DNA from: Caenorhabditis remanei
Lineage: Eukaryota > Nematoda > Chromadorea > Rhabditida > Rhabditidae
Length of the DNA: 64,000 nt
NCBI RefSeq assembly: GCF_010183535.1
Contig: NC_071332.1
Coordinates: 20,088,001-20,152,000 of the forward strand
Direction of reading: 5' to 3'
In this document: piece by piece, positions 2,202 through 64,000 of the stretch
Layout of the letters: every line of letters begins with the position of its first letter
How positions within the stretch are numbered: the stretch's first letter is position 1
The notes under the pieces: generated by a model
Databases searched by the model: none
Seen by the model: the letters and a program-made list of their open reading frames with translations, nothing else
What the model was told of the DNA's origin: nothing
Position numbers and translations under genes: made by a program

Positions 2202-3899
2202 TTAAACGTTACAGTTAGAGACTTCGACTTGAGAAGGGTTACTTGTAAACTGAGCTGCTTTCTGATGTTCATACATAGGCACAAATTCTTGATTCCAATT
2301 GGTTCCACTGTTATAGCTGCCCGGTTGATAGCAATCAAATCGACCTGCCAAGGTATTTGCAACAAGTTTCTGACCACGACTAGATTGGTATTCTTGAGAA
2401 TTTTTGTAGAACTGATTACTCGAATACTCGCTTTGGGTTTCATTGATATATCTAAACGGATGATAGCAATTTGGTTCATTGTAAACGTTAGAGGTAGTGA
2501 TATTGTCTATATCACTAGTAGATTCTTCATTTTCCTCTTCCTCCTCGTCCCAATCAGTTTCACTATCTTCTTCCTCGATGACTCCCTCCTCAGTTGTCCT
2601 TGTCAACTGAAGATAGCAATCACTGAAACTCATTCATTAGATAATAATGTAACTTGAAATCTACATTCCAACTTACACACAAATTTTCTCCTTAGTGACA
2701 GGATGGATGGCGTGTATTCCCGGAGGTAGTAGTAGCTTGCAGAATGTATTTGAGCAACTGAAAAAAATGAAATAGAGTTTGTGCAATTATTTTAAGAATC
2801 TTACTTTGTTTCAAGTCTTATTTTTCTCTTAGTTTCCATAATCGATGTTCGGTCTTTTCCTTTCTTTTTATGATACAAATAGCAAGCACTGAAATCCAAT
2901 TATTGATTATAGTAATAAATATTGTTTAGCTTACTGGCAAATCTTCTCCTTAGTTACAGGGTGAACATTAAATTTTCTCGTAAGTAGAGTTCTCTTACAG
3001 AACGTATTGGCACAACTGAAAAAAAAACTGTTGAGTTCAGTGGAAAACATTAAAAGATTTACTTTGTCTCATGTTTCTCTCTTCTTCTCACAGTTTTGAT
3101 CACTTCTCGGTCTTTTCCATTTACTTTGTAATAATTGTAGCAAGCACTGAAGTCTAGTTATCAATTACAGATATAGATATTGTTAAGCTTACTTGCAAAT
3201 CTTTTCGTTAGTTTCAGGGTGATCATTATATTCTCCCACAGATAGAGTTCGCTTACAGGATGCATTGGCGCAACTGAAAATAAACAACTAACAGTTTTTA
3301 GAAAATCTTACAAATAAAATTACTCTTTCTCGTGTTTTTCTTTTGTTCTCCTTGTTCGGGCAACCTCTCGGTCTTTTCCTTTTCTTATATAATAAGAATA
3401 GCAGGAACTGAAATTTAGTTATCAATTATGGATGAGCTTTCGAGCTTACCGGCAAACTTTCTCCTTTGTTATAGGATGACGATGATTTCCCTTGAGTATG
3501 GTTTGGTTGCATTGCTGTGTTGGCGCATCTAGAAAAAGTCGCGCAACTGAAAATAAAAGACTATCAATTTTTCGTGAATATTCCAAATAAAATTACTTTG
3601 TTTCGTGTTCTTCTCGTCTTCTTTTCGTTACGATCACTTCTCGGTCTTTTCCATTTCTTTTATAATACGTATAGCAAACACTGAAAATTAGTTATCGATA
3701 ACTCTGCCCTTGTTATTCAGCTCATGACTTAGCCCGTGAATTTACCTGCAAACTTTTTCCTGTTTTGCGGGATGTCGTCGAAAATAGGAACCAGGACGTT
3801 TTAGTTGTTGGCAGAATGTGTTGCCACATCTGGAAATATTAATAAACTTTGCATTTAAAAGAGTCTTTCTAACCTCTCCTCTTCTTTTTCAAGTGACAT
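2202..3899 (-). CDS. zf1: tandem GATA-like C4 zinc-finger protein, one frameshift
   Basis: Probably nuclear and nucleic-acid binding; the function is unproven. Exons: 3874-3899, 3746-3829, 3597-3680, 3450-3528, 3324-3407, 3193-3273, 3063-3146, 2935-3015, 2805-2888, 2677-2757, 2202-2622. The start MSLEKEEE is shared with zf2 and zf20. Five fingers follow, each split over two exons at a phase-2 intron (for example CANTFCKRTLL...HPVTKEKIC). The last exon is acidic (DWDEEEEENEE) and then Tyr/Gln-rich with QEFVPMYE. The fourth exon has an extra base between the first and second finger cysteines, so the second finger is out of frame unless splicing differs. This is either a pseudogene or a sequence or assembly error. 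Confidence 0.7.
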
Positions 3900-3904
3900 A
3901 TCTG

Positions 3905-5112
3905 AAAATTTAAAAATAAAATAAAAACATTGAGTTGATTGTAGGGATTAACGGAGGGATAAAAGTATAATTTACTGTAGCTTAGATGCTCAGGTTAAGA
4001 TTAAAGACAAGCAGCGGTAGAGACTTCAACAGTTTATTAAGTTATAGATAATTCAAGATTAGATGTTACTGAGTTATAAGACTGCAGAAATGTTGGAAAT
4101 GCAGCATGTCGTATTCTTGTTTTCTGAAAATAGAACTTGTTACAAGGAAAAAAGTTGGTTACTAAATTTTGGATGGTCAACTCGCCTAGATAATTTAACT
4201 ATATCTAAACCTGCCTGTCCCTGCCTCAGTCCCCTTTAAATGTATCAATTTGCGAATAGAAGTGTCATCAATTTTTGATGACCCAGTTTATTGCAAGAAT
4301 ATCTCTCATTTTCGACGCCTATAAACTTCACGGGTACCAAAAAAGACAAATGTCCAGTTCTTGTTTCCTTATCAATCTCACGAAAAGATACTATGAATTG
4401 TTTTTTGTTCTCACGGAAAAAGAAAATCGTTCGATTAGTCATACATACATATAGATTTGAGTTCTATCCTAGGATCTGCTGCATCTGAAAACTAGAATAC
4501 CATTATATGTACCACCAAATCTAAGAACTCACCTTTAACAATTCGAATTCATGGAAATCGGAGAAGTTGTTTCTGTGGAAAGTGTTCTTTCCCGTTATCT
4601 AGGTTGTCTCTTATCAATTGTTTCTTTTTGCAAGACTTTTTGTGTTTTTTTAATCGATACCGGTTTGGGTGATCTTGATATCTGTGGGAAAAGATATTGA
4701 ATTGACTTTTGATCCCTGAAAACATCTGAACTGGAACAGAGCATGCGATTACTGTAGCAGGACTGCTCAAATCAAGATTATAGATAAATATTGGTTCATG
4801 CATTGCAATTTTATTCATTTACGATAAAGGGGAACTACTGAAAATTTGCAGCCAGTGTCGCTGGATGGATTCAGAAAAATCTCTAGTGAAAGTCAGTTCT
4901 TTTGCACTGTTGAATGTTATCAGAAACATCGTTTATTGGAATATCGTCGAATGTCACTGGATTTTAATTGGTTGGAATTTCAGTTTGTCCAATTGCCTGC
5001 TGTAAAATCCATGTACACTTTTCTCCTACTTTCCCTTCAACTCACATCTTAGTTTTTAAAATCTTACTTTGTTTCCTGTTTTTCGGCCGCTCTTTTTAAA
5101 TCTATTTGTCTC
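3905..5112 (-). other. Spacer between zf2 and zf1 with conserved 5' block and exon relics
   Basis: 3905-4020 matches the sequence upstream of the MSLEKE-type starts of zf2 and zf20 and is probably the zf1 5' flank. 4020-4450 matches the long spacer found downstream of other copies (TTGTTCTCACGGAAAAAGAAAATCG-like sequence). 4846-5100 on the minus strand holds decayed exons: a METKRQIDLKR...EKQETK tail with a good donor, and a remnant of the terminal exon of zf11. I see no intact gene here. Confidence 0.5.
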
Positions 5113-8100
5113 TTAGTTTCCATTTTTCTTTACCACGTCGTTGGAGGCATCCTCGATCTCATCTACAGCAGATTCTTCAGAAGTTGTAGAATAATCTGAG
5201 TCACTGTCCAGATCCATGTCATCGTTTTCAGATTTCCAATCGCCAATACTTTCTTCGGAATCAGAAGAGAACTGTTTAGGTTTTGGCTTAAAACAATTTC
5301 TTCTTGTAGAATGTAACTTTTGATGTTTTTCAGGCCCTTTTTCTTCAGCTTTCTCTCGTATCACTTCTCGATCTCTTCCATTTCTTTTATGATAATAATA
5401 GCAAACCCTGAAAGCTAGTTATCGATTACAGATGTATATTGTTAAGCTTACTTGCAAATCTTCTCCTTAGTTACAGGATGAATACCAGATTTTCCCGGAA
5501 GTAGGGTTTGCTTACAGAATGTGTTGGCACAACTGAAAAAGCTAGCGAGTTTACTGAAAAATATCAAAAAAATTTACATTTTTTCGTGGTCCTCTCTTAT
5601 TTTTTGGATTATTGTTCGGTCTTTTCCATTTCTTCTGTAATACGCATAGCAAGCACTGAAATTTAGTTATCAATTACAAATTTATATATTGTCACGCTTA
5701 CCTGCAAATCTTCTCTTTAGTGACAGGATGAATACTAATGTTTCGCCGATGTAAAGTTTGTTTACAGAACGTATTGGCGCAACTGAAAAAAAAACTGTTG
5801 AGTTCAGTGAAAAGCATAAAAATAATTCACTTTGTTTCGTGTTCTTCTCGTCTTCTTTTCGTTATGATCACTTCTCGGTCTTTTCCATTTCTTTTGTAAT
5901 ACGTATAGCAAATACTGAAATCTAGTTATCGATTACAGATACAGTACTGGCCATAAAGAAAGCGACACTTGCAATTTTTAGTTGAAAATGACAGACTTTG
6001 TGACTGTGACACGGCCTCCCTGATAGTCTCACAATATTGATTGTACATGGACTATACAGATCACAAATAGATATTCATTTTTGTAGTTGACAACTTTTTT
6101 GTACAGACACGTCCTAAGAAGTTATCAATGAAATTTCTTGCAATTATTGCCAGTGCTAAAAAGAGAGATTTTAGAGCTTTTTACGCAGACTGCCCGTACA
6201 AAAAAGTTGACCTACAAAATTAAAGCTGTATCTTTGTTCTATATAGTCCATAAAAAATAAATATTGTGGGACTATCAGGGAAGCCATGTCACAGTCACAA
6301 ATTTAATCATTTTCAACTAAAAACTGCAAGTGTCGCATTCTTTATGGCCAGTACTGTACATATATTAGGTTGTCCCAAAAGTTTTCGAACATAGTTTTGT
6401 TATTCTGCTATAGGACAGAGAGCAAGAATCAAACCAAATAGTGCACGTTTTCCATTATATAAGACGTCGGGTGTATTGACAATAACATTCATTTCTTCTG
6501 GCTGCCTTCTCTCAATGAACGCGGCACCAATCTTTGTCCCCGACCGAATTCATATTCGTCATGTCATTTTATTTTTGTTTCTATCTAACTCCAAAATCAC
6601 TGAGATTGAAGAACGTATGGTTGAAGTTTAAAAGGATAATGCCCCCAACGGCAGACAATTAGCCATTGGGTTCATTGTTTCAAAAATAATGATTTTTCTT
6701 TGGCCGAAGAAGCACGTTCTGGAAGACCAGTGGAGTTGGACATTGACAAGCTACGGGAGGTAATGGAAAGTGACCCATTTCAATCCATTCGCGAACTGGC
6801 AACAATAATGGGCTCTACCCACTCTGCGGTAGAAAGAGGACTGGGAGCTCTTGGCAAGCTAAAAAAAATGGGAAGATGGATACCACACAAATTGTCTAAC
6901 TTTGACCTTGAGCGCCAAGTGGGCATGTCACTGCAACTTCAAACCCTCCATCCTAATTTCAACTGGCTGGAGCATTTGGTTACGTCGGACGAGAAGTGGG
7001 TCTTATACGAAAACCACCACAGGAGAGCCCAGTGGGTTGATGCTGATAAACAGCCAGAGGATGTCATCAAACAGGAGTTTAACCTTAAGAAAATATTGCT
7101 CTCCGTCTGGTGGTCTGTTCATGGACTGCTTTATTGGGAACTGCTTCCCGAGGGAAAAAATATCACCGCCGACTACTATTCTTCTCAATTACAAAAGGTG
7201 AAGTCCAAACTGAAAACCTCCCCTCTACACGGTCACGGAGTCCACTACCTCCATGACAACGCAAAACCACACACCGCAAAGACGATAAAGTCTCTCCTGG
7301 CTACATTGCACTGGACAGTCCTTACTCACCCTCCGTACAGCCCTGATATCGCTCATTCGGATTACCATCTGTTCAGCGACATGCATCGATCCTTTGAAGG
7401 CCAGGACTTCAAAACAAAGTCAGAGATCGAGAAATGGTTGAAGAAGTATTTTGACTCGAAGCAGCCTGAGTTTTGGCGGAAAGGTATTGAATCTCTACCT
7501 ACTAAATGGCAAAGAGTCGTGGATAAAGGTGGTCACTATGTTTGATTTTTGTAATTTTCTGGCTTTGAATAATTTTGATTTCAATAATGTTCGAAAACTT
7601 ATGGGACAACCTAATATATTGTTAAGCTTACCTGCAAACCTTCTTTTTAGTGACAGGATGAAGCTTGACGTTCTTAAGCAGTTCTACCTTACAGAACGTA
7701 TTTGCGCAACTGAAAATGTTTTTTTCGAGTTCAGTGAAAAACATCAAAAAACTTACTTCGTCTCATGTTTCTCTCTTTTCCTCACAGTTTTGATCACTTC
7801 TCGGTCTTTTCCATTTACTTTGTAATACGTATAGCAAGTACTGAAATTTAGTTATCAATTATTACAGATATATATTGTCAAGCTTACTGGCAAACCTTCT
7901 CTTTTGTGACAGGATGAACATTACAGTTTCGCGAATGTAAAGTTTGTTTACAGAATGTATTGGCGCAACTGAAAAAAAAAACTGTTGAGTTTGGTGAAAA
8001 GCATAAAATAACTCACTTTGTTTCGTGTTCTTCTCGTCTTCTCACAATTTTGATCACTTCTCGGTCTTTTCCATTTCTTTTGTAATACATATAGCAAGCA

Positions 8101-11040
8101 CTGAAATCTAGTTATTGATTATATATATATATATATATGTTCAGCTTACGTGCAAATTTTCTCTTTAGTGGCAGGATGAACATTAAAGTGTCGCGGATCT
8201 AAAGTTTGTTTACAGAACGTATTGGCGCAACTGAAAAACAATTATCGAGTTCAGTGAAAAGCATAAAGTTATTTACTTTGTTTCATGTTTTTCTCGTCTT
8301 CTCTTCGTTACGATCCTTTCTCGGTCTTTTCCATTCACTTTGTAATAATTGTGGCATATACTGAAGTCTAGTTATCGATTACAGATACATATATATTGTT
8401 AAACTTACCGGCAAATCTTCTCGTTAGTGACAGGATGAGTCCTGATGTTTTTAAGTAGTGCTACCTTACAGAACGTATTTGCGCATCTGAAAAAGTTGTT
8501 AAGCTTCATCGCATATACAAAATCTTCTTACTTTTGACCTTCAAACATCTCTCTTTCACGTCCTTTCTTATATGGTGATTCCTGGATACCCTTGTTTTCT
8601 GATTCATGACTTGCTAGGGAGCGCGAGCTAAAAAAAACTTTTAAAAGTTACTAGAACAAATAGAGATTAGCCACTCAGCCTACTTGGAACTATTTGGTGT
8701 CTTTTCCGGTGAGGTATCACTGTTTAGTTCTTCGCAAATGATAACATGATCTTCTGTTACTTGTTTCTCATGTGAAGACGAGATGCTTGAAACTGGTTCC
8801 AATGGTGTAGCACATGAGCTTTCAGGAGAATAAATGATCGGAACATCTTCCTGTAGTGGCTTATAACACTTTGCTTGAATATCAGGATCTTTTGAAGACG
8901 GGATGTTTGAAACTGGTTCCAATGTGGTATACGTTATGGTTTCTGTTGCACTTTCAGAAGCATTAATGATTGAAACGTCTTCCTGCGGTGGCCCATAACA
9001 ATGCAAGGTGTGAGAATTGTTACTTGGGAACTGAGGCACGAATTCCTGATTCCAATAGTTTTCACTGTTATAGATGAATAGTTGATAGCAATCAAGTTCT
9101 TCCTCATAACTGTATTGGTATTCTTGAGAATTGTAGAGCTCTTGGGTTTCATTGCTATATCCAAATGGAAGATAGCAATCTGGTTGGTAGAAAAAGTTAA
9201 AGGTGGTGTCTTCGACTACATGAGATTCCAAGTTTTGCTCTTTTTCGGAGTCCACAGCACTGTTCACCTTGGTACTGTAGAAAGGTTCAGAGTGCGAGCC
9301 ATCAATAAAATCGGGATGGTCAAATGAGTCCTCTGATATCAGAGCTTCAGGGAAGAGTTTGGATAAGTCTTCGATAAAAGAGGGTAGGAAATTGGAGTAA
9401 CTTGCAAATGGAACAGTCTCATGCTCAGTCCAAGTATATAACCGGTATACCGGAAATATCTCAATATTATTCCATATCATAAACACCGATGTCATTGGCG
9501 GGAATATTTCATCAATAGCTTTTTGTAGTAAAAACTCTTTGCTGGATTTTTCTAGATCCGCAAGAATGGTAAGGCAGTCTTCCTCTTGATGCACAACATC
9601 GAAAAATGAGGTCAAGTCCTCAAGTTCTATTTCAGGTAAGTCTTCGTATAGTGACGTTCTATAACAAAAATCGAATCGGATTTTTCAATATTTAAAACAT
9701 ATATACTTACAGTGCAAGGATCGCTTTTTCTTCTATGCCATCAACTCGATTATACTCAGTTTCCAAATACTTTTTGTAGCAGTCCGGCTCTTTTGTTGTA
9801 GGCAAACCAAATGAAGCTACATTGGGAGGTAGAAGAGAGTTGCATGATGGGACATTGCATCTGGAACTGCTTATTATAAGAGGCACAAGGCTTGTATAAC
9901 CTTACATTTTATCTATTGGATTATTTGCTAGAACACTTTGAGTAGAACCTTCCGTGCCAACTTTTGGTTCTTTCACGTCCTCCTCGGTATCGTTTTTCGT
10001 TACTACGTCGTTGGAGGCATTTGCGACCTCATCTGCAGTAGATTCTTCAGAAGTTGTAGAATTATCTGAATCGCTGTCCAAATCCGTGTCATCGTTTTCA
10101 GATTCCCAATCGATAATATTTTCTTCGGAATCTGAAGCGTCTGAGGAATCTGGAGATGAGGACATCGGTTGTTTAGGTTTTGGCTTTGAGCAACTTCTCG
10201 TTGTTCTTTTTGTAGTTTGTAACTTCTTCTTCAACGTTATTTTAGTAAATTCTTCGTTTTTTTTCGGGCGCCCAGGCGTAGTCCTTATGACTTCTCGGTC
10301 TTTTCCATTTCGTTTGTAGTAGTTATAGCATACTCTGAAACTCAGACAACAGTAAAGAAGTTATTTGTTCTAACCTCACAAGCAAATCTTCTCTTTTGTA
10401 ACTGGATGACGTCTGAAGTCTGTTGGATGTAATGGTTGCTTGCAGAATGTGTTGGCACAACTCAATTTCTTCACATTTCCTGCTACCACTTCGCGGTCAC
10501 GTCCATGTCTTTTATAGTAGAGATAGCAATTTCTGAAATTTAATTGTCAGTTAAGAAACATTGTTAAGTTACAGCTATAATTAAGAAGTATTTAAAAATT
10601 GACTTGCAGATCCGCTCGTTAGTGACAGGGTGAACCGCGTTTCTTCTTGGAAGTAGTAACATATTGCATAATGTGTTGGCGCAACTGAAAAATCTATCGA
10701 ATTCAGTGAAAAAAACATCAAAAAACTTACTTTGTTTCACTTTTTTCTCTTCTTTTCCTCGTTGTGATCACTTCTCGGTCTTTCCCTTTATTATAATAAT
10801 AATTGTAGCAAGCACTGAAAATTAGTTATCGGCCAGTTAAAAAATTATTGCATCATCTCTCAACTTACGCGCAAACACTTTCCTTAGTTGCTGGATGTCT
10901 TCGGAAAACGACAGAACCAGGACGTTTTAGTTGTTGGCAGGCTGTGTTAGCACATCTGAAAACAGTAATAAAAACTGCACTAAAAATAATCTTTCTCACT
11001 TTTCCTCTTTAATCAGCTCTTTTTCCTTTTCAAGGGACAT
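5113..11040 (-). CDS. zf2: large tandem GATA-like C4 zinc-finger protein (21 exons)
   Basis: The spliced frame is open for 1,094 residues. Exons: 11000-11040, 10869-10955, 10731-10814, 10604-10684, 10380-10532, 9906-10334, 9711-9860, 8684-9658, 8532-8627, 8409-8486, 8277-8360, 8150-8230, 8017-8100, 7888-7968, 7757-7840, 7632-7709, 5831-5914, 5702-5782, 5578-5655, 5452-5532, 5113-5407. Order: MSLEKEKE start, three fingers, an acidic Ser-rich domain (DLDSDSDNSTTSEEST), a CNVPSC finger that lacks its third ligand, a 325-residue Tyr/Gln-rich exon with TITYTTLEPV, six more fingers, and a second copy of the acidic domain. Exon 5 joins the end of one finger to the start of the next, so an intron has been lost. 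A stop just after the first acidic domain would end a shorter isoform; the 45-bp GT-AG intron there favours one long gene. Intron 16 holds two mobile elements. Confidence 0.8.
5942..6356. mobile_element. Tc1-like foldback MITE, subfamily A, copy 1
   Basis: A 415-bp inverted repeat ending in CAGTACTGGCCATAAAGAA, flanked by TA (5940-5941 and 6357-6358). The end resembles the Tc1 terminus CAGTGCTGGCCAAAAAG. It sits in intron 16 of zf2, next to a mariner. It has no coding capacity. Confidence 0.85.
6365..7614 (+). mobile_element. mariner-type transposon (1,250 bp)
   Basis: Terminal inverted repeats of about 28 bp begin TTAGGTTGTCCCAAAAGTTT on the left. The reverse complement of the right end matches with one change. 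TA flanks both ends (6363-6364, 7615-7616). The element carries one damaged transposase gene and lies wholly inside intron 16 of zf2, on the opposite strand to that gene. Confidence 0.92.
6513..7545 (+). pseudogene. mariner transposase, degraded at the N-terminus
   Basis: The transposase cuts and pastes the element at TA sites. The 281-codon open frame from 6700 holds the helix-turn-helix region, WIPHKL, and the catalytic DD34D triad: D97 in TSDEKW, D186 in HDNAKPH and D221 in SPDIAHSDYHLF, with exactly 34 residues between the last two. The family consensus SPDLAPSD reads SPDIAHSD here. Upstream, a frame from 6513 (MNAAPIFVPDRI) meets a stop near 6630 and shifts frame before 6700. The family is about 345 residues long, so the N-terminus is broken and the copy is probably inactive. 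Confidence 0.88.
8120..8139. repeat. (AT)n microsatellite
   Basis: Ten or so AT dinucleotides in a zf2 intron between finger exons. No function is indicated. Confidence 0.8.
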
Positions 11041-11755: not shown

Positions 11756-14700
11756 CTATTTGCAATCCGTTTCAGATGAATCTGACTCGCAATCTGATTC
11801 TGAAGACTCTTCTATTGAAGAATCGTCAGAAGATATGGACATCGTATCTGATCCACTTTCATATCTATCACGGTCTCTGTAAAACCATTTCTTCTAAATT
11901 TCCTACGTTTGCTCTAACTTACAATTTCTTCACTTTTTCTACTACCACTTCTCGATCACGTCCATTTCTTTTATAGTAGTGATAGCAATTACTGAAACTT
12001 ACTTTTCATTTAAAAATCATAGTTAAACTATAGTTATAATCATAGAAGTAATTAAAAACTAACTCGCAAATCCGCTCCTTAGTAACAGGGTGAACCACGC
12101 TTCTTTTAGGAAGTAGGAATTTCTTGCAGAATTTGTTGGCGCAACTGAACGAAAAATTGGGAGAAGAAAATGCCAAGAAACTCACTGTGTTTCATGTTGT
12201 TCTTTGTTTCTTCTCGTTTTGATCACTTCTCGGTCTCTTCCATTTCTTTGATAATATGACAGACAAGCTCTGAAATTTAGTTTTTGTCAACGATTGAAAG
12301 TTTACGCTTACGGGCAAATTAATTTTTTTGTCACAGGATGTCGGTAGCTTCTTTTTAGTGGTTGTTTACAAATGGTGTTGGTACAGCTGAAAATAAAGAA
12401 CTATCAATATTTTGAAAATCTTCCTAACAAAATTACTTTGTTTCGTGCTTTTCTCTCTTTCTATGAGTTATGATCACTTCTCGATCTTTTCCATATTTCT
12501 TATAGTGATAATAGCAATTCCTGAAACTGAAGTGTAACTAAAAACCGCATACTTTCAAGCTTACATGCAAATTTTCTCTTTAGTGACAGGATGAGGTCTA
12601 AAGTGTTTCGCAAGTAACAGCTGTTGACAGACTGTGTTGGCGCATCTGAAAAAATTGTTAAGCTTCATCACATATACAAACTTATCTTACTTTTCACCGT
12701 CAAAAAACTTTTGTTTAGGTATTTTTTTATATGGATCATCAGTTTTATTTGGATGGATAGTCTCACTTTGTGGTTCTTGAGTTTTTGAGTTCCTGAAAAT
12801 AATATATGTATATATACAGTACTGGCCATAAAGAATGCGACACTTGCAGTTTTTAGTTGAAAATGGTCAACTTTGTGACTGTGACACGGCCTCCCTGATA
12901 GTCTGACAATATTGATTTTTATGGAGTGTATAGATCACAAATAGAGCTTCATTTTTGTAGTTGACCACTTTTTTGTACAGACACGTCCCAAGAAGTTATC
13001 AATCGTCAATGTCAATTGCTCGAAAATCTCCTCTCTTAGCACTGAAAAAGTGCAAAAATAGCAAGGAAATATTTTGCGGATTGATAACTTCTTAGGATGT
13101 GTCCGCACAAAAAAGTTGTCAACTACAAAAATGAAGATCTATTTGTGATCTATACACTCCATAAAAATCGATATTGTGGCACTGTCAGGGAGGCCGTGTC
13201 ACAGTCACAAAGTTGACCATTTTCAACTAAAAACTGCAAGTGTCGCATTCTTTATGGCCAGTACTGTATATGTTGTTGACAGAATGTGTTGAAAATATCA
13301 AGAAACTCACTTTGTTTCATCATTTTCTTTTTTTCTTGTTGTTATAATTTCTCGATCTTTCCCATTCCTTTTGTAATATGTCTGACAGGCTCTGGAATTC
13401 AGTTTTTGTAAACGGTTAATAGTTTACGCTTACTGGCAAATTCTTTCCTGTGTCACAGGATGTAGGGCGTTTTTTTTGGGATTAGTGGTTGTTTGCAATA
13501 TGCATTGGCGCAACTGAAAATAAACGACTATCATTTTTTTTTGAGAACACTCCAAATGAAATTACTGTGTTTCGTGCTTTTCTCTTTGTCTCCTCGTTAC
13601 GATCACTTTTCGGTCTCTCCCTGTATTTTTGTGGTAATCATAACAGGTTCTAAAATTTAGATTAAAATAAGTAAAAAGGAATAAACTTTAGCTTACTTGC
13701 AAACTCTTTTTTGTGTCACAGGATGTAGGGCGTTCTGTTTTGGGAGTAGTGGTTGTTTGCAATATGCATTGGCGCAACTGAAAATGACCGTGTATCAATT
13801 TTTAGAGAACATTCCAAATTAAATCACTGTGTTTCGTGTTCTTCTCTTTTTTTCCTCGTTATGATCACTTTTCGGTCTTTCCCTGATTTTCTGCGGTAAT
13901 CATAACATGGCCTAAAATATAGATTATAATAAGAATAAAGGAATACCTCCTAGCTTACTTGCAAATCTTCTCCTTAGTGACAGGATGAGTCCTACCCTTT
14001 TGCGGAAAAAGCGCACTTTTGCAGACGTTGTTAGCGCATCTATAAAAAACGCTGTTAAGCTATCTACAAACTCATCTTACTTTTCACTGTGGGGTTCTTG
14101 AGTTTCTGAGTTTCTGAAAATAATATTAATGAACATATCTAACTGTGTAGCTTACTTATCGCTCTCAGTTTCCCTCTCTTGCATCTCTGGTGGGTAGGCA
14201 ATGGTCACTTCTTGACAACTAATGCCAGGATTATCTGTGATTGGTGTTTCTAACGGACAAGTGCGGCTAGACGCTGGCTCCAGTGTAGTATACGTAATGG
14301 CTTCTGCTGAATTTTCAGAAAAATCGATACCGCTGCTGTTAAAGTATATCTCCGGCTGGTATGATGGAATTTGATAGGCTTCATTATTGGACAAAACATT
14401 TGATTCTTGATATTGATATGGAGGAATTGAATTGTATTCTTGAGAGCATTGCAATCTGGTATTTGACAGGTTTGGAACAGGATACATCTGGGTATTAACA
14501 GCTGGCCTGTTCCACTGTTCCACAGGGGATTCAACTTCCATTAAATCTTCTTCCAAGTTTTGCACCGAACTCTTACAAGGTTCTGGCAACGGTAAACTAA
14601 ACTCCGATCTAAGAATTAGCTGAAATTCATGAGTTCGAACAAAACCAACTCACTTTTTATTCACTGCTCCTCTTTCTGCCGCAATCACTCTCTCGTACTC

Positions 14701-15119: not shown

Positions 15120-15627
15120 GAGGTGGGCTTTGACCAGAGATTAGGACATAAAATTACAGTGCTTAATGTTTGAAGAGTTTATTCAGTTGCAGATAAATAA
15201 ATCATTGAGTTCTGCTGACTTGTAAGTTATAAGAAATCAGGAGTGTTGGAAGTGTAGCATGTCGTCTTCTTGTTTCCTGGAAATCACAATTCATCAATAC
15301 TCAAACCTACGAGTCCCTACCTCTTTCAAAAGACTAGTGGTCAATAGCCACCCATAAAAGTATCAATTCGAAAAAAAAGTGTCATAAATTTTTTGACATC
15401 CCAGTTTTTGCAAAGAAATGCGAGATTTTCTCTGGTTTTCTCGTCTATAAAGCCCAAGTCCAATAAATTTCACGCGTACCAAAAAAAGAAAAATTGCCCA
15501 GTTCTCACAAAAAGATATTACTAAAAGTATTTTGTTCTGACGGAAAAAGAAAATCGTTCGGTTAGTCATACAGAAAAATCTTCGATAAGGTTCGAACTTT
15601 TATTTTGTGGAAGCAATCTATTCAACT

Positions 15628-40367: not shown

Positions 40368-40464
40368 TTGTGGAAAGGCGAAAAGGGAGAAAACTGGTTT
40401 ATTATAAAATTTCTGACCCCACAACCCAGACTTATCATCTTCCCTGTTTCATAAGTGTTTTATC

Positions 40465-40889: not shown

Positions 40890-40897
40890 GTTTTATC

Positions 40898-43125: not shown

Positions 43126-44181
43126 TCAGCAGGGCTCTTCTTTAACTGTGAGATTGTCAGTTTCAGGTTTTTCAGGTTTTTCAGAGGATGGCGGGCTGAA
43201 ATTCATTATATTCTCGGAAAACTTTAACTAGCTTACCTAACTTTTTCAGCTTCAATTTTCAGGGATCTCTGACGGTAGAGTTTTCCGTAGCAGGAGCTGA
43301 AAAATTATATGTTTTTTGCCTCCCTGAAGAGTTATATACAGTAGAAATTGGTCAGTGTAAGTTTACACTGACAAACTTCAATCTTTCATAACTCCACAGA
43401 AACGGCTATTAAAATAACCAAATTTGGTGTATATACTAAAAAAGATCCGGGCTTCATTTTTATAGTTGACAACTTTTTTGTAGAGGCAGTCCCTAGAGAG
43501 TTATAGCCCGTCTACGTAGTTCATGACATAATCCCAATTAGGATACTGTAACTCTCCGGCGTCATTATGTACAAAAAAGTGGTCAACTACAAAAATGTAG
43601 CTCTATATGTAATATATATATTTACAAATTTCAGATTGATGGGGCGAAAACTGACACCAGGACCCACTTTCCAAAAAAATAAGCATAGCTGGCGTACTGT
43701 AACTCCCCAGTAACCGTCAGTACAAAACAGTTGCCCCCTACCAAAACTTAATTGCTAATTATCTACTCACATACACGTCCTCTTCTGCAACTCTTGATTC
43801 ATAAACGCCTTCCCAAAAACCAACTCATTTGTACATCCAGGCACCCCGCATATTGTTTGGGAGGTTACTAATCTGGAATTTCTTTTTCGAATATTGAGAT
43901 TTTTTTGTTTATAAAACAAGCTTACACTTTCACCCCTATTATCATCTTCTTCATATTCGCCTCCAATTTATATTGCTCGGTCTTTTTCATGTCTCCATAC
44001 AGTTTTTTGTAGCAGGGTCTGAAATTTTGTTCTAAAATTTATTATTTCATCCCACCGGCTCAACTCACTTGCAAATTTTCCACTGTTGTTCTGTAAGAGT
44101 CAATATTTTCCTCTTGCCTAGTGGCTTCCTGCAGGATGTGCATTTGGAATTAGAAATGATATCAGAATCTGGCGTAGACAT
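43126..44181 (-). CDS. zf16: small two-finger C4 protein (5 exons)
   Basis: The spliced frame is open for 145 residues. Exons: 44069-44181, 43926-44018, 43771-43872, 43237-43296, 43126-43195. MSTPDSDIISNSK, then CTSCRKPLGKRK...WKICKPCYKKLYGDMKK, then CGVPGCTNELVFG...KRTCISCYGKLYRQRS. The end is acidic (SEKPEKPETDN). The long intron 3 (43297-43770) holds a decayed foldback. Confidence 0.74.
43330..43740. repeat. Degenerate Tc1-like foldback in zf16 intron
   Basis: Contains AGTTGACAACTTTTTTGTA and its inverse GTGGTCAACTAC, the internal signature of the MITEs at 5942 and 20334. The outer ends are decayed. Confidence 0.45.
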
Positions 44182-51800: not shown

Positions 51801-54207
51801 CAAGAGTGGCTAGTGGCTGTTTACAGGATGGATCACAGCAGAGCCGAAGGGCGGTGGAGAGAAACTTGTCTGTGCTGTAAGTCACGCGCCGGGAGCATGA
51901 AGAGTGATCTTTCACAGAAATTGGCTGGGCAAAGTTTGGAGGTTCTTTGCTTTGCACTGCGATAGACTCTGGTTGAGGAGCTTTCGAAAGTGTGGAAAGG
52001 CTCAGTAGTGGCACTGGAGTAGCCACTAGTCCCGGTGTGCTTAATCCTCTTGTGTTAAACACGGAACTGTAGTAGTTTGGATCATGGACTGCCGGAAAAT
52101 CCTTCCGCGCTTCCTGAGTAACTGCACTCCTTTCCAAAAACGCGGGGTCGGGCCGAGTTAGGAAACTATAAGTTTCCCCAATCAATTGAAAAGTTTGGTT
52201 CGTGGCAGGGGAGGCTTCAGGGGGAGAAACAGTAAAGGGCTCTGGAGCAGCAAACATGATGCGTTGGGATAGCTCCGGAGAAGGCAGTATAGTGGCTGGC
52301 AATGGTATGGGGGTTATGCAAACTTCAGAAGTTTCAAGGAGTGGATGGATCATGGGGGCTATGGGGACGAGTACAGATTCGGAAGTTTCAAAGACAACGG
52401 GCTTGCTAGATCTGAAAATTTTTCAGTTTAAAAAAGTATGCGAAAAACTAGGTACCCTGGTAACTTTGGAAATGACTCATCAAGATGTGGAGATGGTTCG
52501 GTTTCCGTAGCTAAATCAGAAGGTGGATCTAAAAAAGGTACAAAACAGTCGGTTGTAGGCAGTCTGGTGGAGGGATTTTCAAAAACTTTGTATTGCTCTC
52601 GAAAGCAAAAACGACACAGCGCCTTCTTTCCCGTTAGTCTCTCGCAGGATGTGTTTGCACATGGCTTGAAGGGTCCCCATGGTACATTGTTTTGTTTACG
52701 TAAGCGATAACGGTGGTAGCAGTTGCTGAAAAATTTGAGTTCAAGGGAGAAAGGAAGTGAAATTTTCAGTGGTTCAACTCACCGACAACACCTCTCACCA
52801 GTCATATATGGATGTTTGAAGCCAAGAGTGACTAGTGGCTCCTTACAGGTTGGATCACAACAGAGTCGAAGGGTGGTGGAATTTAACTTGCTAGGGTTAG
52901 GAGGCTCTTGAGGTACAAAACAGACGGTTGCAGGCAGCGCGGCCAAGTTAGAGACATTTCCAGACACTTTGTCTTGCTTCTGGATTTTTTTATAACAGAG
53001 GCTGCAAAAAAACTAATTCTGAAAACAATCTCTCTATAACAATTCACTTACAGACAAACAGGTTTCCCGCTATCAGGATGACGTCGCACTGTATGATTTT
53101 TCAGTAGCCTGTTGCAGTCGGGCATGGCGCATATAGCAGTAAATTCGGTTTCGAAGCAAAATCGGCACATTCCTTCCTTTTCCGTTAGTCTCTCACAAGA
53201 CGGGTTTACACATGACTTGAACGGTCCCCATGGTACATTCTTTTGTTTAAGTAAGCGATAACGCTGGTAGCACTTGCTGAAAAATTTAAGTTTAAGGGAG
53301 AAGGGAAGTGAAATTTTCAAAGGTTCAACTCACCTACAACACCTCTCGCCAGTCATATATGGATGTTTGAAGCCAAGAGTGACTAGTGGCTCCTTACAGG
53401 TTGGATCACAACAGAGTCGAAGGGTGGTGGAGGGAGACCTGTCTGTGATGTGAGTCTTGCGCCGGGAGCATGACGAGTGATCTTTCACAGAAATTGGCCT
53501 GTCAGGGTTCGGAAGTTCTTCACTCACAGAGACGGTACCCACTGGTTCTTGTAACTTCATTTCCATAGCTATCTTCAACCCCTCCAAATAAACATCTTTT
53601 GGCACTGGATCCACAATTTCCGTTCGTTTCAGAGCAGGGAATATCTCAGACAACGCCTTGACACAAGCACTGGAGGGTGCTGGCTCCTTCGGTGGTTCGA
53701 TGAACGGAACCGGCAGTTTTGATCGATTTTCTGATTCCTCAGCTTCCTTACGTTGCGTTTCTTGTGTCACGAATTTGTCATGACAGTATCTGAAATTTTC
53801 CGCTGTAGGTCGATTTCTTATAGAAAAAGCCCACCGACAAACAATTTTCTTTGTCTTCGGATGTATAAACGTGGTCCCTTCATTCATCACAGTGAAACAA
53901 GTGTCGTTGGAGCATCTAGAAATGTTTTCAAAGTACAGTAACCGACAGAAAAACCTACTGATACTTTTTCTTCGCATGCACCGGTCTGTCCCATTGTTTC
54001 CGTTGATAGTATATGTAGCAAAGTCTATAAATTTCTTTGTTTGGGTTACTGTAGTCTACGTGAGTTACCCGCATGCAGGTTTCTTCGATTTTGGATGTAA
54101 ATAGTCGGGTTTTGTTCCAAGAGAGACGGAACAGTTGTAGCATCTGGAATTAGTTCAAATTACAGTAACCTGGAAAAAATACAGTTCCTTAACACAACTT
54201 TATCCAT
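48892..54207 (-). CDS. zf17: very large tandem C4 zinc-finger protein (21 exons)
   Basis: The spliced frame is open for 1,444 residues. Exons: 54194-54207, 54069-54143, 53959-54024, 53835-53915, 53334-53789, 53052-53276, 52783-53001, 52456-52725, 51761-52411, 51437-51703, 51138-51383, 50850-51080, 50625-50795, 49837-50577, 49688-49783, 49561-49641, 49444-49518, 49311-49391, 49174-49263, 49049-49129, 48892-49009. About 15 fingers: CYNC; CSNDTC; then repeated cassettes CCDPTCKEPL...ERCC..C, CxNPSCERLTEKK..CRFC, and in two cases CAMPxCNR...HPDS.KPVC; then three CANxxC fingers. Between them are Pro-rich segments (TRGLSTPGLVATPVPLL; LRPMSPIMKHPLFGY). Exon 1 (MDKVV) is inferred from phase. One intron (51081-51137) starts GC. 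Confidence 0.78.
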
Positions 54208-54965: not shown

Positions 54966-57900
54966 ATGGCCGAATTTTCAAGTTTCTATTCCTCTCTGTA
55001 CAATTCAAGGGGTTTGACTACTCCGAGACTGGTCGAGACGCCTACAGCTCCTCCTAATCCACATGTCGACAGCCCAGTGCCATTTTCACTACTGGAAACA
55101 CCCACTGAGCTGGTAGGCACCCCTGCGACTCTGAACCCAAGCGTGGGTATCCCCTCAGTATCTCCCGCGTGAGTGTTTTACCCAAATCGATATTTTCTTT
55201 GTTTTCTCCTTTGCAGCCTTTGTTACCGTTACCTTCACAAGGAAAGTGTGGAAGCCGTCCCACAGCAGCTACCGTACCCCATGCTACCTGGGTACCCTGG
55301 GTACCAACCTCCCTTCTTGAGACCTATGTCTCCAATAATGAAGCACCCCTTGTTTGGGTACACACCTGAGACAAATTCTCAACAAGTTCCTTACTGGCCG
55401 CCATCTCAGATACCGTTCCCGGAAAAAGAGGATCCCGATATTGAAGTAGTTTATGAAAGTAGGTTTATTTGTGTTGAGTGCTCAACTTACATTAACTTTT
55501 TCAGACATCCATGTACCAAATTGTTATAATCCGAGCTCCCCGCAAAAGGCACCGAATAGTTCCAAGTAGGCTGATGGCTATTTCAATTTGTACTAGTAAC
55601 GTAAAAATTGTTTTTAGCTTGTGCTCCACAAAAAGTCAAGAATCGCAAAACAAGAGTGTCCCAAATTCCTCACAAAAGAATGCTAACAAATGCCAATTGT
55701 TTGAAGATCAAAAGTAAAAATGAGTCCTGTAAATGTGAACCCTGATAACCTTTTTTAGATGCGCCAACTCAGGAAAAGACCAAACAATATTCAAAACAGT
55801 GAGAAGAAGAGTGAAACACGAAACAATGTAATTTAAATTTTTTTGGCATATTCTCAAAATACTGAAAGCCTTTTATTTTCAGTTGCGCCAATGCGCTTTG
55901 TAAGCGAGCTCTACTTCCGGGAAAGTTTAATGTTCACCCTGTAACTAATGAGAATGTTTGCATGTAAGCTTAACTACAGATATATCTGTAAGTGATCACT
56001 AGATTTCAGTGAATGCTGTTGGTATTATAAAAGAAATGGTAAAGACCGAGAAGTGATTTTAATGAGGAGAAAAATAGATGCAAAGAGAAGGGCCGAAAAG
56101 CTTGAAACAAAGTAAGATTCTTTAAACGGTTTTATAAACTCCAATAAGTTTTTGTTCAGTTGCTCAAATACATTCTGCAACCTACCACTACCTCCGGGAA
56201 AACACGCCACTCATCCTATCACTAAGGAGAAAATTTGTGTGTAAGTTGGCAGATGTAAACTTCAAGTTACATTATTATCCAATGAATAAGTTTCAGTGCT
56301 TGCTATGCCTACTATGAAATAACTGGAGGGACCGGAGATAGTGTAGGAGCAAAAATGTAAGTTGAAGGAAGGAAAAGTAGGGAATTCAAAGAAATGGGTT
56401 TTACAGAAAGCAAAAGAACGCTCATGAAGATCCAACAAATGGAAAGGGGGTGGCATCTGCCGATATTCCAGAATCACCCACTAAGCTTATAACAGTGCTT
56501 ACGTCGGAACATGTCCCAATAATAGAGCCCACTCAAAATTTTGAGCGCTCCAAGCAGAACTCAGATTTTGGTGCGTGGACCACTGCTCTAGCATCAAACA
56601 CAGAAAATCCTGCTATTTGCTGCCAAGAAGAAAGTATTGCTCATCAACCAGGGAAGCAACAGAAGGATGCGCAGAGCGACAAGTAAGCTAAACAATTATA
56701 AGTGTTCATCAATATTATCCGCAAATGGAGACTTGCCATTCAATGGTGATCCATATAAGAAGGTCAAAAATAAGACAACTTTTTTTAGATGCGCTAACAA
56801 TCTCTGTAAGGGAACACTTTTTCCGCGAAACATTAGGTATCATCCTATTACTAAGGAGAAGATTTGCAGGTAAGGTAGAAGATATTCCTTTTTTCGTACT
56901 GTTATCTAAATTTTAGAACATGTTATAATTACTACATAAAAGAAGGAAAAGACCGAGGAACAGAGGGAAGAAAAGAGCAGTATGAGATAAGGTGAGATAC
57001 TTGATTCGTTTCGAGACATTTTTGATTAATTTTTTGTTCAGTTGTGCCAACACATTCTGCAAAAAGCTAATCCATCCAAAAAACTTGAGAACTCATCCTG
57101 TGACTGAGACGAAGATTTGCTAGTAAGTTTGATGGCTCATTTGTAACTAATCACTAATTTTCAGTTCCTGCTACATTTATTATAAAAGAAATGGAAGAGA
57201 CCGAGAAGTGATCCAAATTCATACAAGAAGAAAAGAGCATGAAACTAAGTGAGATTCTTGACATTTTCTTTTTCCAATTTTCAGTTCAGTTGCGCCAACA
57301 CATTCTGCAAGCGCTTACTACTTCCGGGGAGACACGTGGCTCATCCTGTCACAAAAGAGCGGATTTGCGAGTCAGTTTTTTTATAATTTTTATAATGATA
57401 ACCAGTGTGTGCCTTCGAAGCAATTTCGAAAGAATTTTCGAAAAATCTTTCGAAAGATCTTTCGAAATTTTTTCGAAATTATTTCGAAAGAATTATTTCG
57501 AAATTTTTTCGAAAGATTTTCGAAAAATCTTTCGAAAGATCTTTCGAAAAAATTTCGAAATTTTTTCGAAAGAAATTTTTCGAAATTTTTTCGAAATTTT
57601 TTCGAAAGATCTTTCGAAAGATTCTTCGAAAGATTTTCGAAAGATCTTTCGAAAGATTCTTCGAAAGATTTTCGAAAGATCTTTCGAAAGATCTTTCGAA
57701 ATTAATTACTGTAGCTTTAAAGGCGCATAGCAAAAAAGTTTTCATACAGTATACAAAAATTACAAATCAGCCGTCTTCTACCAAATTCAGTGAAGTTTTG
57801 GTGTTTTATAGCAATAAATTTTCAAAATTTCCCCTGAACTTATATTTAATCTCCAAAAGACTGGTTAATTGAAAGTACCAACAAAAAAAGAAAAAAAATT

Positions 57901-59186: not shown

Positions 59187-62100
59187 ATGGAATGTACACT
59201 CAAACTAGGTTCTACAGTAACCCAGGCTTTGCGAGTCCAAACCCCTTATCAGTCCCTCCAACCAATTATTTAAGCTGCTCTATTCCGTCATGCCATTCTC
59301 TTATTACACCAGACTCGGCATCATTCCACTTGCCTTCTACCGGAATGTTGGTGTGCTGGTAAGTCAGTTTATTCACATCAAAATTTTTTTTTAAATTAGA
59401 GTTGGTTTTTTAGTAACTGCTACAAGTTATACTTGAAAAGTGAGTACGAGAGAGTAATTGCGGCAGAAAGATTAGCAGTGAATGAAAAGTGAGTTGCTTT
59501 TGTTTGAACTTATGAATATCCGCTAATTCTTAGATCGGAATGTGATTCACCGCTACCTGAAGGTTGTAAAAGCTCAGTGGGAAACAATTCAGCACCAGTA
59601 TCAGATTTGAATGAAGATTTAATAGAAATTGAATCCTCTGACGACCAGGCTAGTCCAAACATCTCGGAAGACATTGTAGAAGAGTGTCCAGTGCAATTAG
59701 ATCTTGAAAACCCCGCCCAGATTACACATGAAAATATAATACAAGAACCTCCGAAAGAAACGTGAGTCTATAACAATTTATCTCAAAATAGAAAGTACTT
59801 TAAGATGCGAAAAATGCATGGAACTTATACGGCGGAAACCTATCATGTTTGTTAAATTAGGAGTCCGGACAAAGCTATGCCAGTGAGTACTATAATAAAA
59901 TCAAAATCTAGGAGAATCTGACACGTTTTAGTGACTGTTATAAGATAGTCCGCTCTGCTCCGCAATCTGAGGAGCCAGTAGGTCAAGAAGTCGCTGCAAG
60001 TCGAAGTAAAAAGTATGTTAACAAAACTCTTTAGTCAACACATAATCTCTGTTAATTTCAGATGCACCACATGCAACAAATCTAAAAAAAGGAAACGCAA
60101 GGTATTTGCCGGGCAACAAAAAAACAAGTTACGTACCCATCCGGAAACAGGAGAGCTGACATGCCGGTGAGTTGTTTTTGATGAGAATTTTAACTTACGG
60201 CTTTTAATTATAGGGGATGTTTAATGAAGTACTATAGGAACGAAAAACAAAAAGAGAAGATGTTCGGCAGGGTGCCGAACACGAATAATAGTCAGGAGGA
60301 TACATTGCAAGGTGATAATAATGAAGAACAAGTTGATGGTCGACAAGAAACGGAGCAGAACACCCCCTGTGCCAGTTCCAGCCAAGAATGTGAATCAAAA
60401 AGCTTGACAAATGTGTCTTCGGCGAGTCCAACGACCATCCCGAATAATATAACTTCTGATTATTCAAATCACATTCAACCAGTGAATCATAACCATGGAA
60501 CTCAATGGCATTTTTCTGATATCTATCGGAGTCAACAACTCAAAGATTCACAAGAATACAATTTTGACCACGATCCAAATCCCATCCCTCCACTTCAATA
60601 TCAAGAACCAACCAATATCGCAGACAATTATATGGACAAACGTGAGGCATATCACCATGAAATGCATTTCAACAGTAGTTATGGCATTTCCAATACCTAC
60701 CAACCTCAGCATGGTTACGCTTTTCCCATAGACGCTTCTGAAGATTCTGCAGAAACCGTTTCGTATACAACATTGGAGGCAGTGCCCAGCATCTCTTCTT
60801 CATTTGTGAGAAAGGACTTGGAGCATTTTGTTGATAACTGTGAAAAACTGAACGATGATAATTTTTCGGATCAGGCAGAGAAGGATACGCAGGTTGACAA
60901 GTAAGCTGAACATTTAAAGCTGAACATTCTGTTCTCAGAAAATCTTCCATATTTTTAGTTCATGCCCTATTGACGCTTGTGATTTTCAAAGTGAGAGCAT
61001 CCAAAAACAGCCCGATGAGGAGGAAAACAAAGAATTATCACCCGAAAAGGAAAAGTAAGAGAAATATTAAATGTAAAGTTTATTGACATTTTCAGATGCG
61101 CCAACACATTTTGCAAGCAACCACTACTTTTTAGTGTTTCCCATCCTTTGACAAGGAAGAAAATTTGCCGGTAAGCTCAAAAGCGCATTCGTAGTTGACA
61201 ACTAAATTTCAGTGCCTGCTATAATTGTTATAAAAGAAATGGAAGAGACCGAGAAGTGATCCAAATTCATAGAAGAAGAAAAGAGCATGAAACTCAGTGA
61301 ATTATTTAATGTTTTTCTTCGAACTTGATAGTTTTTTTTCAGCTGCGCCAATACGATTTGTAGGTCTACACTACTTCCGCAAAAAAATGCTGTTCATCCT
61401 GTCACTAAAGAAAAGATTTGCACGTAAGCTTGAGGATATTCCTTTTTCCTTATTATTATCTAAGTTTTAGTGCCTGCTTTAATTATTACAAAAGAAATGG
61501 AAGAAACCGAGAAGTGATCGTAACAAAGAGAAGAAGAGAAAAACATGAAACTCAGTGAGTATCTTGACATTTTCTTTTTTCAATTGTTGTTCAGTTGCGC
61601 CAACACCTTGTGCAAGCAATTACTACTTAAAGGAAGAAACGTCGTTCACCCTGCAACTAAAGAGAAGATTTGCATGTGAGCGTGAGAACATTCTTTTTTC
61701 CTAATTGTTATCTGTACTTTAGAACATGTTATAAGTACTACAAAAGAAATGGAAGTTACCGAGAAGTTATCATAACCAATAGAAGAAGAGAGACACACAA
61801 AACCAAGTGAATTATTTGATGTTCTTCTCCGAACTTGGTAGTTTTTTTTCAGCTGCGCCAATATATTCTGTAAGCAAACTCTTCTTCCCAAAAAAATTGC
61901 TGTTCATCCTGTCACTAAAGAGAAGATTTGCATGTGAGCGTGAGGATATTCTTTTTTCCTAATTGTTATCTGTGTTTTAGAGTATGTTATAATTACTACA
62001 AAAGGAAAGGAAGAGACCGAGAAGTGATCGTAACAAGGAGAAGAAGAGAAAAACATGAAACTCAGTGAGTATCTTGACATTTTCTTTTTCAATTGTTGTT

Positions 62101-62492
62101 CAGTTGCGCCAACACCTTGTGCAAGCAATTACTACTTCAAGGAAGAAACGTCGTTCACCCTGCCACTAAAGAGCGGATTTGCGAGTCAGTTTTTAATTAC
62201 TTATATGATTATAACTATAAATTCACTACGTTTTTCAACTGACAATTAAGTTTCAGTCTTTGTTATGACTACTTCAAAAGAAATGGACGTGATCGAGAAG
62301 TGGTAGCAGGAAAAGTGAAGAAATTGTAAGTTAGAGCAAACATGGGAAGTTCAGATAAATTGGTTTTACAGCAAGCGTGATAAATATGAAAGTGAATCAG
62401 ATACGACGTCCATATCTTCTGACGATTCTTCAATTGAAGAGTCTTCAGAATCAGATAGCGATTCTGATTCATCTGAAATGGATTGCGAATAA
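59187..62492 (+). CDS. zf19: tandem GATA-like C4 zinc-finger protein (20 exons)
   Basis: The spliced frame is open for 800 residues. Exons: 59187-59230, 59275-59358, 59414-59488, 59534-59761, 59805-59882, 59932-60012, 60062-60166, 60214-60900, 60959-61054, 61096-61170, 61213-61296, 61343-61423, 61471-61554, 61595-61675, 61723-61806, 61853-61933, 61981-62064, 62104-62184, 62257-62325, 62372-62492. MECTLKLG; CSIPSC finger; CEKC...CHDC and CTTC...CRGC fingers (C-x2-C type); a 229-residue Asn/Gln/Tyr-rich exon with VSYTTLEAV; five CANxxC fingers; acidic tail ending EMDCE. Intron 1 starts GC (GCGAG) where sister genes have GTGAG. AATAAA at 62623-62628 follows. Confidence 0.87.
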
Positions 62493-63222
62493 AAAAAATT
62501 GTGAGTTGATTTCTATTATCTTTTTTTAAACATATAACTTTTTTCTTTTTTTTCAGAACTTCAGCTTCCCTCTCTAGCATTACATACCCTCCGTTTTTGG
62601 TTTGTAAAGATTTTTTCTACACAATAAATATCCGAACATCATGATCAAAAACCGTTATGTATGACTAACCGAACAATTTTTCCCGTGAAAACAAAAAAAA
62701 ACTATTTGCAATATCGTGAGAGATAAGACCACCACCATTGATAAGAAAACGAGAACTGGACATTTGTCTTTTTTGGTACTCGTGAAATTTATAGGCGTAG
62801 ACAACTAAAGATATTCTCGCACTTCGTCGCAATAAACTGGGTTGATAAAATAAATGACATGTTTCTTGCAAATTGATACTTTTACGTGGGGCTATTCACG
62901 ACTAGACTTCTGAGAGAGGCAGGGACCGTCAACTGAGAAAAACTGAACTTTCCAGGCAGGTAATGGATGTCGATAAATTATCTAGTTCGATAAATAATCT
63001 AGGATTTTCAGGAAACGACATGCTACACCTCCAACATTTGCAGTGAATCGTTAATCTTGAATCATCTGAAACTAAATAAACTCTTGATACATTTACCACT
63101 GACTGTCTGTAATCTTTCTGTAATCTCAACCTGAGCATCTAAACTACAGTAATTTATACTTTTATTGCTTCGTTAATATGTACCTATTATATAAACAACT
63201 CAATGTTTTCAGATTTTCAGAT
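62493..63222 (+). other. zf19-zf20 spacer and 3' UTR
   Basis: GTGAG at about 62501 and TTTTTTTCAG near 62555 suggest a 3' UTR intron right after the zf19 stop. AATAAA follows at 62623. From 63060 on, the sequence matches the 5' flank of zf1 and zf2. The gene order here (acidic-tail gene, then MSLEKE-type gene) equals zf3-zf2. Confidence 0.5.
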
Positions 63223-64000
63223 ATGTCCCTGGAAAAAGAACAGGAACTGATAAAGTAAGAAAGATTATTTTAAATGAATGCTAAGTTTATTACTATTTCT
63301 AGATGTGCCAACACATCCTGCCAACAATTAAAACGTCCTGGTGCCGAGTTCCTACGACATCCGGCAACTAAGGAGAGAGTATGCCGGTATGTTAATTGAC
63401 TGACAAGGGTAGAAAGTTGTCAAGAAAGTCGTAGCAAACTATCCGTAGTCAATAAATAATTTTCAGTGCCTGCTGGCAATATTATTATAACAAAGGGAAA
63501 GACCGAGAAGTGAAGAGAAGAAACGAGCAACATGAAACAAAGTGAGATATCTGACGCGTTTCGATACATTCGATTAATTTTTTGTTCAGTTGTGCTAACA
63601 CATTCTGCAACAAACTATTCTATCCAAGACAATTACGGCCTCATCCTGCGACAAAAACAATGATCTGCTCGTAAACTCGAAGGCTCATCCGTATTTAAAA
63701 ACTACATTTCAGGGCCTGCTATGATTATTTTCAAAGACATGGAAGAGACCGAGAAGTGGTCACAATTTATAGAAAAAGAAAAGAGCATAAAACACAGTGA
63801 GTTTCGTGACATTTTCTCCTTAAATTTGTTCGTTCAGTTGCGGCAACACACTGTGCAAGATATTACTACTTCCAGGAAAAATCGCGGCTCACCCTGTCAC
63901 TAAAGAGCGGATTTGCATGTCAGTTTATATTACTTCTATAATTTTAACAACAATGGTTTAATTGAAAATTAAGTTTCAGTAATTGCTGTGCCTACTATAA
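63223..64000 (+). CDS. zf20: tandem GATA-like C4 zinc-finger protein, 5' part only
   Basis: Exons: 63223-63254, 63303-63386, 63467-63541, 63590-63670, 63713-63796, 63838-63918, and from 63980 beyond the window. MSLEKEQELIK start; CANTSCQQLKRPG...ERVCRACWQYYYNKGKDRE; CANTFCNKLFYP...ICSACYDYFQRHGRDRE; CGNTLCKILLLPG...RICINCCAYY cut at the edge. It matches the start of zf2, so the full gene is probably long. Confidence 0.85.

What the first reader, a model, noticed from the sequence alone, without database searches (positions are those of the whole stretch)
2202..64000. An expanded, apparently undescribed family of tandem GATA-like C4 zinc-finger genes
Seen: about 20 linked genes built from fingers with C-x4-C-x17-20-C-x2-C ligands and a YYKRNGRDRE-type basic tail, from 2 up to about 15 fingers per protein. 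Known: GATA fingers are C-x2-C-x17-18-C-x2-C with CNACGLYYK and a basic tail, usually one or two per protein. Inferred: a lineage-specific GATA-like family that has become a polydactyl array. I do not recognise a named family with this arrangement.
Basis: partly seen in the sequence, partly recalled or inferred. Interest (0 to 1): 0.88.

Follow-up and report, generated by a model that had tools for sequence, protein, structure and literature searches.

The report
Polydactyl GATA-derived zinc-finger gene cluster
In the worm Caenorhabditis remanei one stretch of a chromosome holds a tightly packed, little-annotated set of genes whose proteins string together several zinc fingers that appear to descend from the single finger of GATA gene switches, an unusual case of a one-finger DNA reader growing into multi-finger arrays.

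Summary
The finding is real. The window lies in C. remanei. In 54 of 55 a GT donor lies 2 nt after the third-Cys codon. The same genome's END-1, END-3, ELT-3-like and ELT-7-like GATA genes have an intron at that codon and phase; the ELT-1-, EGL-18/ELT-6- and MED-like fingers inspected do not. Profile comparison and one of two fold models also point to GATA. But C-x2-C, W-R-R and C-N-x-C are lost, Pfam GATA stays below cut-off, and Pfam's best match is the GATA-like finger of ATRX's ADD domain. So: GATA-derived, not GATA-family by strict definition. Proteins carry about 2-7 fingers, not 15. Matches lie at 20.09-20.21 Mb of one chromosome, near a med-like GATA cluster, and three word-limited protein searches found only C. 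remanei. DNA binding and regulation are inferred, not shown.

The parts
1977..3899 (-). GCK72_021520 (P0006): run of C-x4-C fingers plus acidic/Tyr-rich C-terminal part; one finger (about 3450-3526) is frame-shifted in this assembly and skipped by the GenBank model
   Evidence: the GenBank model of another C. remanei assembly (P0005) has that finger intact
5113..8485 (-). run of six fingers (exon A starts 8485, 8229, 7967, 7708, 5781, 5531) ending in an acidic C-terminal exon
   Evidence: 260-nt cassette repeat 7614-8438
6640..7545 (+). mariner-type transposase ORF (PF01359) lying in the intron between the two exons of one finger
8680..9684 (-). long acidic, Tyr/Pro/Ser-rich open frame of the kind that precedes finger runs
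9906..10954 (-). run of three fingers (10954, 10683, 10459) and acidic C-terminal exon
11923..14038 (-). run of six fingers (14038, 13776, 13513, 12644, 12385, 12143); 13513 is frame-shifted
15569..18059 (-). 14-exon gene model: start exon, N-terminal CSIPSC finger, acidic linker, four fingers, acidic C-terminus (five fingers in all); the last exon's end is approximate
   Evidence: same layout as P0002 and P0003
18719..21610 (-). GCK72_021523 (P0003)
22412..22836 (-). two further fingers (22836, 22585)
22881..24697 (-). GCK72_021524 (P0007): one C-x2-C and two C-x4-C fingers, then a long acidic part
25898..29440 (-). GCK72_021525 (P0004)
30259..32929 (-). GCK72_021526 (P0002), 505 aa: acidic N part, basic finger block, acidic C part; GenBank skips the finger at 31158-30956
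33663..33870 (-). one diverged finger
35505..35584 (-). exon A of a finger (CSNTFC)
39056..44142 (-). seven strongly diverged finger exons (CSVSGC, CSTDSC, CEIC, CGMPTC, CGIPSC, CGVPGC, CTSC), each with a donor-like site 2 nt after Cys3; others here (for example CSFSHC at 42742) lack it
48946..49640 (-). run of three main-type fingers
50852..54142 (-). second subfamily (CCDPTC ... HPYMTGERC | ... CYNHY ... CANPSC-x9-CRFC); six exons have a donor-like site 2 nt after Cys3, others (51140-51217, 53837-53914) were not scored as having one
55884..57370 (+). fingers on the + strand (55884, 56161, 56790, 57043, 57291), two of them without a stitched exon B
61097..62325 (+). run of five fingers, 258-nt cassettes
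63304..63918 (+). run of fingers that continues past the window end

Best explanation
This is a gene cluster of C. remanei whose proteins are arrays of fingers descended from an ELT-2/ELT-3/END-class GATA finger. A two-exon finger cassette of about 260 nt, carrying the old intron 2 nt after the third-Cys codon, was duplicated within a gene to make arrays. Whole genes were then duplicated in tandem. The N-terminal hairpin of the finger was rebuilt (C-x4-C, an HP motif in place of W-R-R), while the helix and basic tail were kept. Most likely the proteins are nuclear DNA-binding regulators: a basic block of fingers (+29 in P0002 residues 230-466) between acidic N- and C-terminal parts (-27 and -12). 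Shown: the array, the splice pattern, the profile resemblance, constraint on the Cys, and (in one of two low-confidence models) the fold resemblance. Inferred: DNA binding, regulation, and any target.
Confidence: 0.62

Rival explanations
1. The fingers derive from (or work like) the GATA-like finger of an ATRX/DNMT3-type ADD domain and bind histone tails or other proteins, not DNA.
For: Pfam PF17981 above cut-off in P0002 and P0005 and precomputed for P0001, P0002, P0003 and P0005; shared HPxxxxxICxxC[FY]xYY core; ATRX segment 22.8 bits on the finger HMM, maximum of 500 shuffles 13.6; single fingers match ADD_ATRX in 26 of 28 and GATA in 6 of 28 at E <= 1.
Against: No PHD half: the best PF17981 stretch in P0002 covers positions 9-48 of 56 and no PHD family was listed for P0002, P0004 or P0005. 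The intron matches END/ELT-3 genes. P0006 fold searches rank GATA above ATRX ADD. The genome search for PF17981 found nothing, but it also missed the window's own fingers and rang in no control, so it says nothing about a donor gene.
Confidence: 0.17
2. The family comes from the intronless med genes, one cluster of which lies about 30 kb away, by duplication and later divergence.
For: med-type GATA matches at 20.041-20.059 Mb beside the cluster; two of three MED fingers have the highest scores of the canonical GATA fingers on the finger HMM (13.9, 12.7 bits).
Against: Elegans-group med genes lack introns (PMC6945043 section 13, read) and the fingers carry the END/ELT-3 intron; the score differences are small (ELT1N 12.4, MEDa 12.2, ELT3 11.7). 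Possible only if the split predates the intron loss.
Confidence: 0.1
3. A decaying or selfish tandem array with little organismal function; fingers persist because the locus keeps duplicating.
For: Frame-shifted fingers, a mariner insertion, tandem copies, dN/dS near or above 1 in some young pairs.
Against: All four Cys intact in 52 of 55 fingers, pooled omega 0.44, conserved splice sites, presence in two C. remanei assemblies.
Confidence: 0.11

Closest known systems
END-1 / END-3 / ELT-3 / ELT-7 GATA factors of Caenorhabditis
   Same: Intron 2 nt after the third-Cys codon; END-1 also has C-x4-C (CSNPNC) and a YFRKNG tail; C4 finger plus basic tail
   Different: One finger per protein (recalled); W-R and C-N-x-C kept; x17 spacing in ENDs (PMC6945043 section 24)
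Expanded ELT-3-like and ELT-X factors of Pristionchus, Diploscapter and Panagrellus (PMC7712238)
   Same: Lineage-specific expansion of GATA factors, often keeping the zinc-finger intron (section 22)
   Different: One or two such fingers per protein, three in two ELT-1 cases (section 14 and passages of section 16)
MED-1,2
   Same: Divergent GATA fingers, amplified in C. remanei, a cluster nearby (PMC6945043 passages)
   Different: Intronless, C-x2-C-x18-C-x2-C, W-R-N and C-N-A-C kept (PMC6945043 section 24)
GATA-like finger of the ATRX ADD domain (PF17981)
   Same: HP and ICxxC[FY]xYY core at the same spacing
   Different: Linked to a PHD finger in ADD, C-x2-C, not repeated (recalled)
Polydactyl C2H2 families (KRAB-ZNF, ZAD-ZNF)
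   Same: Clustered genes for multi-finger proteins (abstract starts seen in the listing; otherwise recalled)
   Different: C2H2 fold, fingers usually in one exon (recalled)

Membership tests
GATA zinc-finger family | C-x2-C-x17-18-C-x2-C spacing | tested here: not met
   52 of 52 intact main-type fingers are C-x4-C-x17-21-C-x2-C; some cluster relatives are C-x2-C
GATA zinc-finger family | W-R(-R) in the loop and C-N-x-C | tested here: not met
   W-R/K/N 0 of 52; N after Cys3 2 of 52
GATA zinc-finger family | Pfam PF00320 above curated cut-off | tested here: not met
   best 21.3 bits of 26.8, P0005; P0001, P0003 and P0006 were not scanned here, their precomputed Pfam lists no GATA
GATA zinc-finger family | Aromatic/basic helix and tail with conserved Arg | tested here: met
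   Arg at the tail position in 51 of 52; hhalign aligns this part
GATA zinc-finger family | GATA-type fold (two hairpins, helix) | tested here: met
ELT-2/ELT-3/END class of nematode GATA genes | Intron just after the third-Cys codon | tested here: met
   54 of 55 stitched fingers; 4 of 4 own END-1/END-3/ELT-3/ELT-7-like genes at the same codon and phase
GATA zinc-finger family | Binding to HGATAR DNA | not testable with these tools
   needs protein
ADD domain (ATRX/DNMT3) | Pfam PF17981 above cut-off | tested here: met
   P0002 58.1 and P0005 31.2 bits, cut-off 25.7; P0004 13.6, not met
ADD domain (ATRX/DNMT3) | GATA-like finger packed with a PHD finger | tested here: not met
   no PHD family listed for P0002, P0004 or P0005
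ADD domain (ATRX/DNMT3) | Fold match of the whole ADD | tested here: inconclusive

The most novel reading that the evidence does not exclude
The GATA fold has been turned, in one nematode lineage, into a modular polydactyl DNA-reading system comparable to C2H2 arrays: fingers duplicate as two-exon cassettes, vary between Cys3 and Cys4 and along the helix where GATA proteins touch DNA, and together read long, fast-changing sequences such as selfish elements.
Probability: 0.22. Interest if true: 0.85.

Novelty: new variant of a known kind. Interest (0 to 1): 0.63.

Why it matters
GATA factors are conserved developmental regulators that normally carry one or two fingers. Here a GATA-derived finger appears to have escaped that limit, changed its metal-binding spacing and become a tandem-array module, with the old intron still marking each repeat. 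The bridging gene with C-x2-C and C-x4-C fingers makes the route of change directly testable, as does the question whether arrays of GATA-type fingers can read long DNA sites. It also warns that keyword and Pfam surveys of GATA factors can miss such genes or file them under ADD.

Full report
What and where. The window is G000:C5:20,088,001-20,152,000 of a 130.47 Mb genome. Protein searches returned C. remanei GenBank models (GCK72_021520, 021523, 021524, 021525, 021526) on a contig of 22,502,457 bases, the length of our C5, and these map onto the window minus strand. A second C. remanei assembly holds relatives (CRE_23522, CRE_23519, CRE_23387).

The finger. No stitched finger is whole in one reading frame; the C-x4-C-x14-23-C-x2-C pattern occurs in one frame only twice in the window. 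Each finger is made of exon A (consensus CANTFCKQxLxPxxxxxHPVTKEKIC plus 2 nt) and exon B (1 nt, one codon, then CYxYYKRNGRDREVIxT...). Stitching HMM matches of 15 bits or more gave 55 fingers; 52 have all four Cys and read C-x4-C-x17-21-C-x2-C, 41 of them x19. The other three are frame-shifted or lack a Cys. Nine exon-A rows had no partner by my rule, one of them the other reading frame of the frame-shifted finger at 13513; weaker HMM matches were dropped. Across the window 72 of 108 motifs C-x2-4-C-x15-22-C have a donor-like site at +2 nt and at most 6 have one at any other offset 0-23; 20 block-shuffled windows gave mean 15 motifs, and mean 0.2 (maximum 1) with a +2 donor. The 72 include strongly diverged exons at 39-54 kb that share little with the main type except the ligands and the donor.

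The intron as a marker of descent. In 54 of 55 stitched fingers GT stands 2 nt after the third-Cys codon, and in 55 of 55 AG stands 4 nt before the fourth Cys. The stitching looked at these places, so the offset count and GenBank's exon ends for P0002 are the independent support. Own-genome END-3-like (L009) and ELT-3-like (L010) genes, and END-1-like (L055) and ELT-7-like (L062/L063) genes, have an intron at the same codon and phase; END-1 and END-3 are named by the motifs given in PMC6945043 section 24, the others by recall. The ELT-1-like, EGL-18/ELT-6-like and MED-like fingers inspected do not. [quoted passage not shown] elegans ELT-2, where I see 2 nt in C. remanei genes. [quoted passage not shown]

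Genes. One gene model (18059-15569, 14 exons) has a start exon, an N-terminal finger (CSIPSC...), an acidic Ser/Glu-rich linker, four fingers and an acidic tail; P0002 and P0003 have the same layout. Net charges in P0002: -27 in residues 1-229 (N-terminal finger and linker), +29 in 230-466 (finger block), -12 in 467-505. The nine GenBank proteins hold 2-6 complete C-x4-C fingers by pattern; some skip finger exons that I find spliceable. Longest runs are six fingers, seven with an N-terminal one. Cassettes of 258-262 nt repeat in tandem, and the tree groups fingers by their place in paralogous genes, for example 31969 with 20206 and 31444 with 19680 and 16837. This suggests that fingers multiplied within a gene first and that genes multiplied afterwards.

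Genome-wide. A consensus finger matched 80 places, all between 20,090,676 and 20,195,664 on C5. Diverged relatives extend the cluster to about 20.206 Mb, plus one short match to a C-terminal part at 19.654 Mb. The counts are lower bounds. Med-like GATA matches lie at 20.041-20.059 Mb. Past the window, GCK72_021543 mixes C-x2-C and C-x4-C fingers, some with the intron and some without, which is what a transition would look like.

Constraint. In 39 finger pairs of at least 80% identity and equal length, pooled omega is 0.44 (pairs are not independent; some young pairs are near or above 1). Together with the intact ligands this suggests most fingers are maintained, with loose constraint elsewhere.

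Mechanism. The helix and basic tail that GATA proteins lay on DNA are kept (tail Arg 51 of 52), but W-R-R and C-N-x-C are lost, so classic HGATAR recognition is not predicted. Columns just after Cys3 and in the helix (31, 32, 35, 40 of the alignment) vary between fingers, which would fit differing contacts, but that is inference. I hold GATA descent at about 0.8, DNA binding at about 0.6 and regulation of specific targets lower.

Verdict. A real, apparently undescribed, GATA-derived polydactyl family; not a GATA-family member by strict definition. The closest library label, ADD_ATRX, reflects a shared GATA-like core without the PHD half.

Noticed in passing
6640-7545 (+): Mariner-type transposase ORF of 301 aa (PF01359) lies in the intron between the two exons of one finger, stretching it to about 1.7 kb.
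   Followed up: partly
890-1531 (-), 44830-45444 (+), 46323-47201 (+): Srz-type chemoreceptor genes (PF10325) in and beside the finger cluster.
   Followed up: no
57424-57701 and 57983-58210: Satellite-like arrays of TTTCGAAA-type units that read as open frames in several frames.
   Followed up: no
410-796 and 12812-13271: Inverted repeats (182 and 198 nt arms, 92-93% complementary) that look like small inverted-repeat elements; the second lies between finger exons.
   Followed up: no
L048 (C5:20,192,001-20,202,000) and L047: Further diverged finger genes past the window, including C-x2-C fingers with an HPVT motif and the +2 donor.
   Followed up: partly
P0007 residues 12-35 (exon 24697-24602 and the next): An N-terminal C-x2-C-x18-C-x2-C finger with a Trp (CSSCNEKITDQFWMLSENKFCSAC), unlike the others; LIM-like or GATA-like by eye.
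   Followed up: no
about 3450-3526 and 13434-13513 (-): Frame-shifted fingers in this assembly; the first is intact in the GenBank model of another C. remanei assembly.
   Followed up: partly
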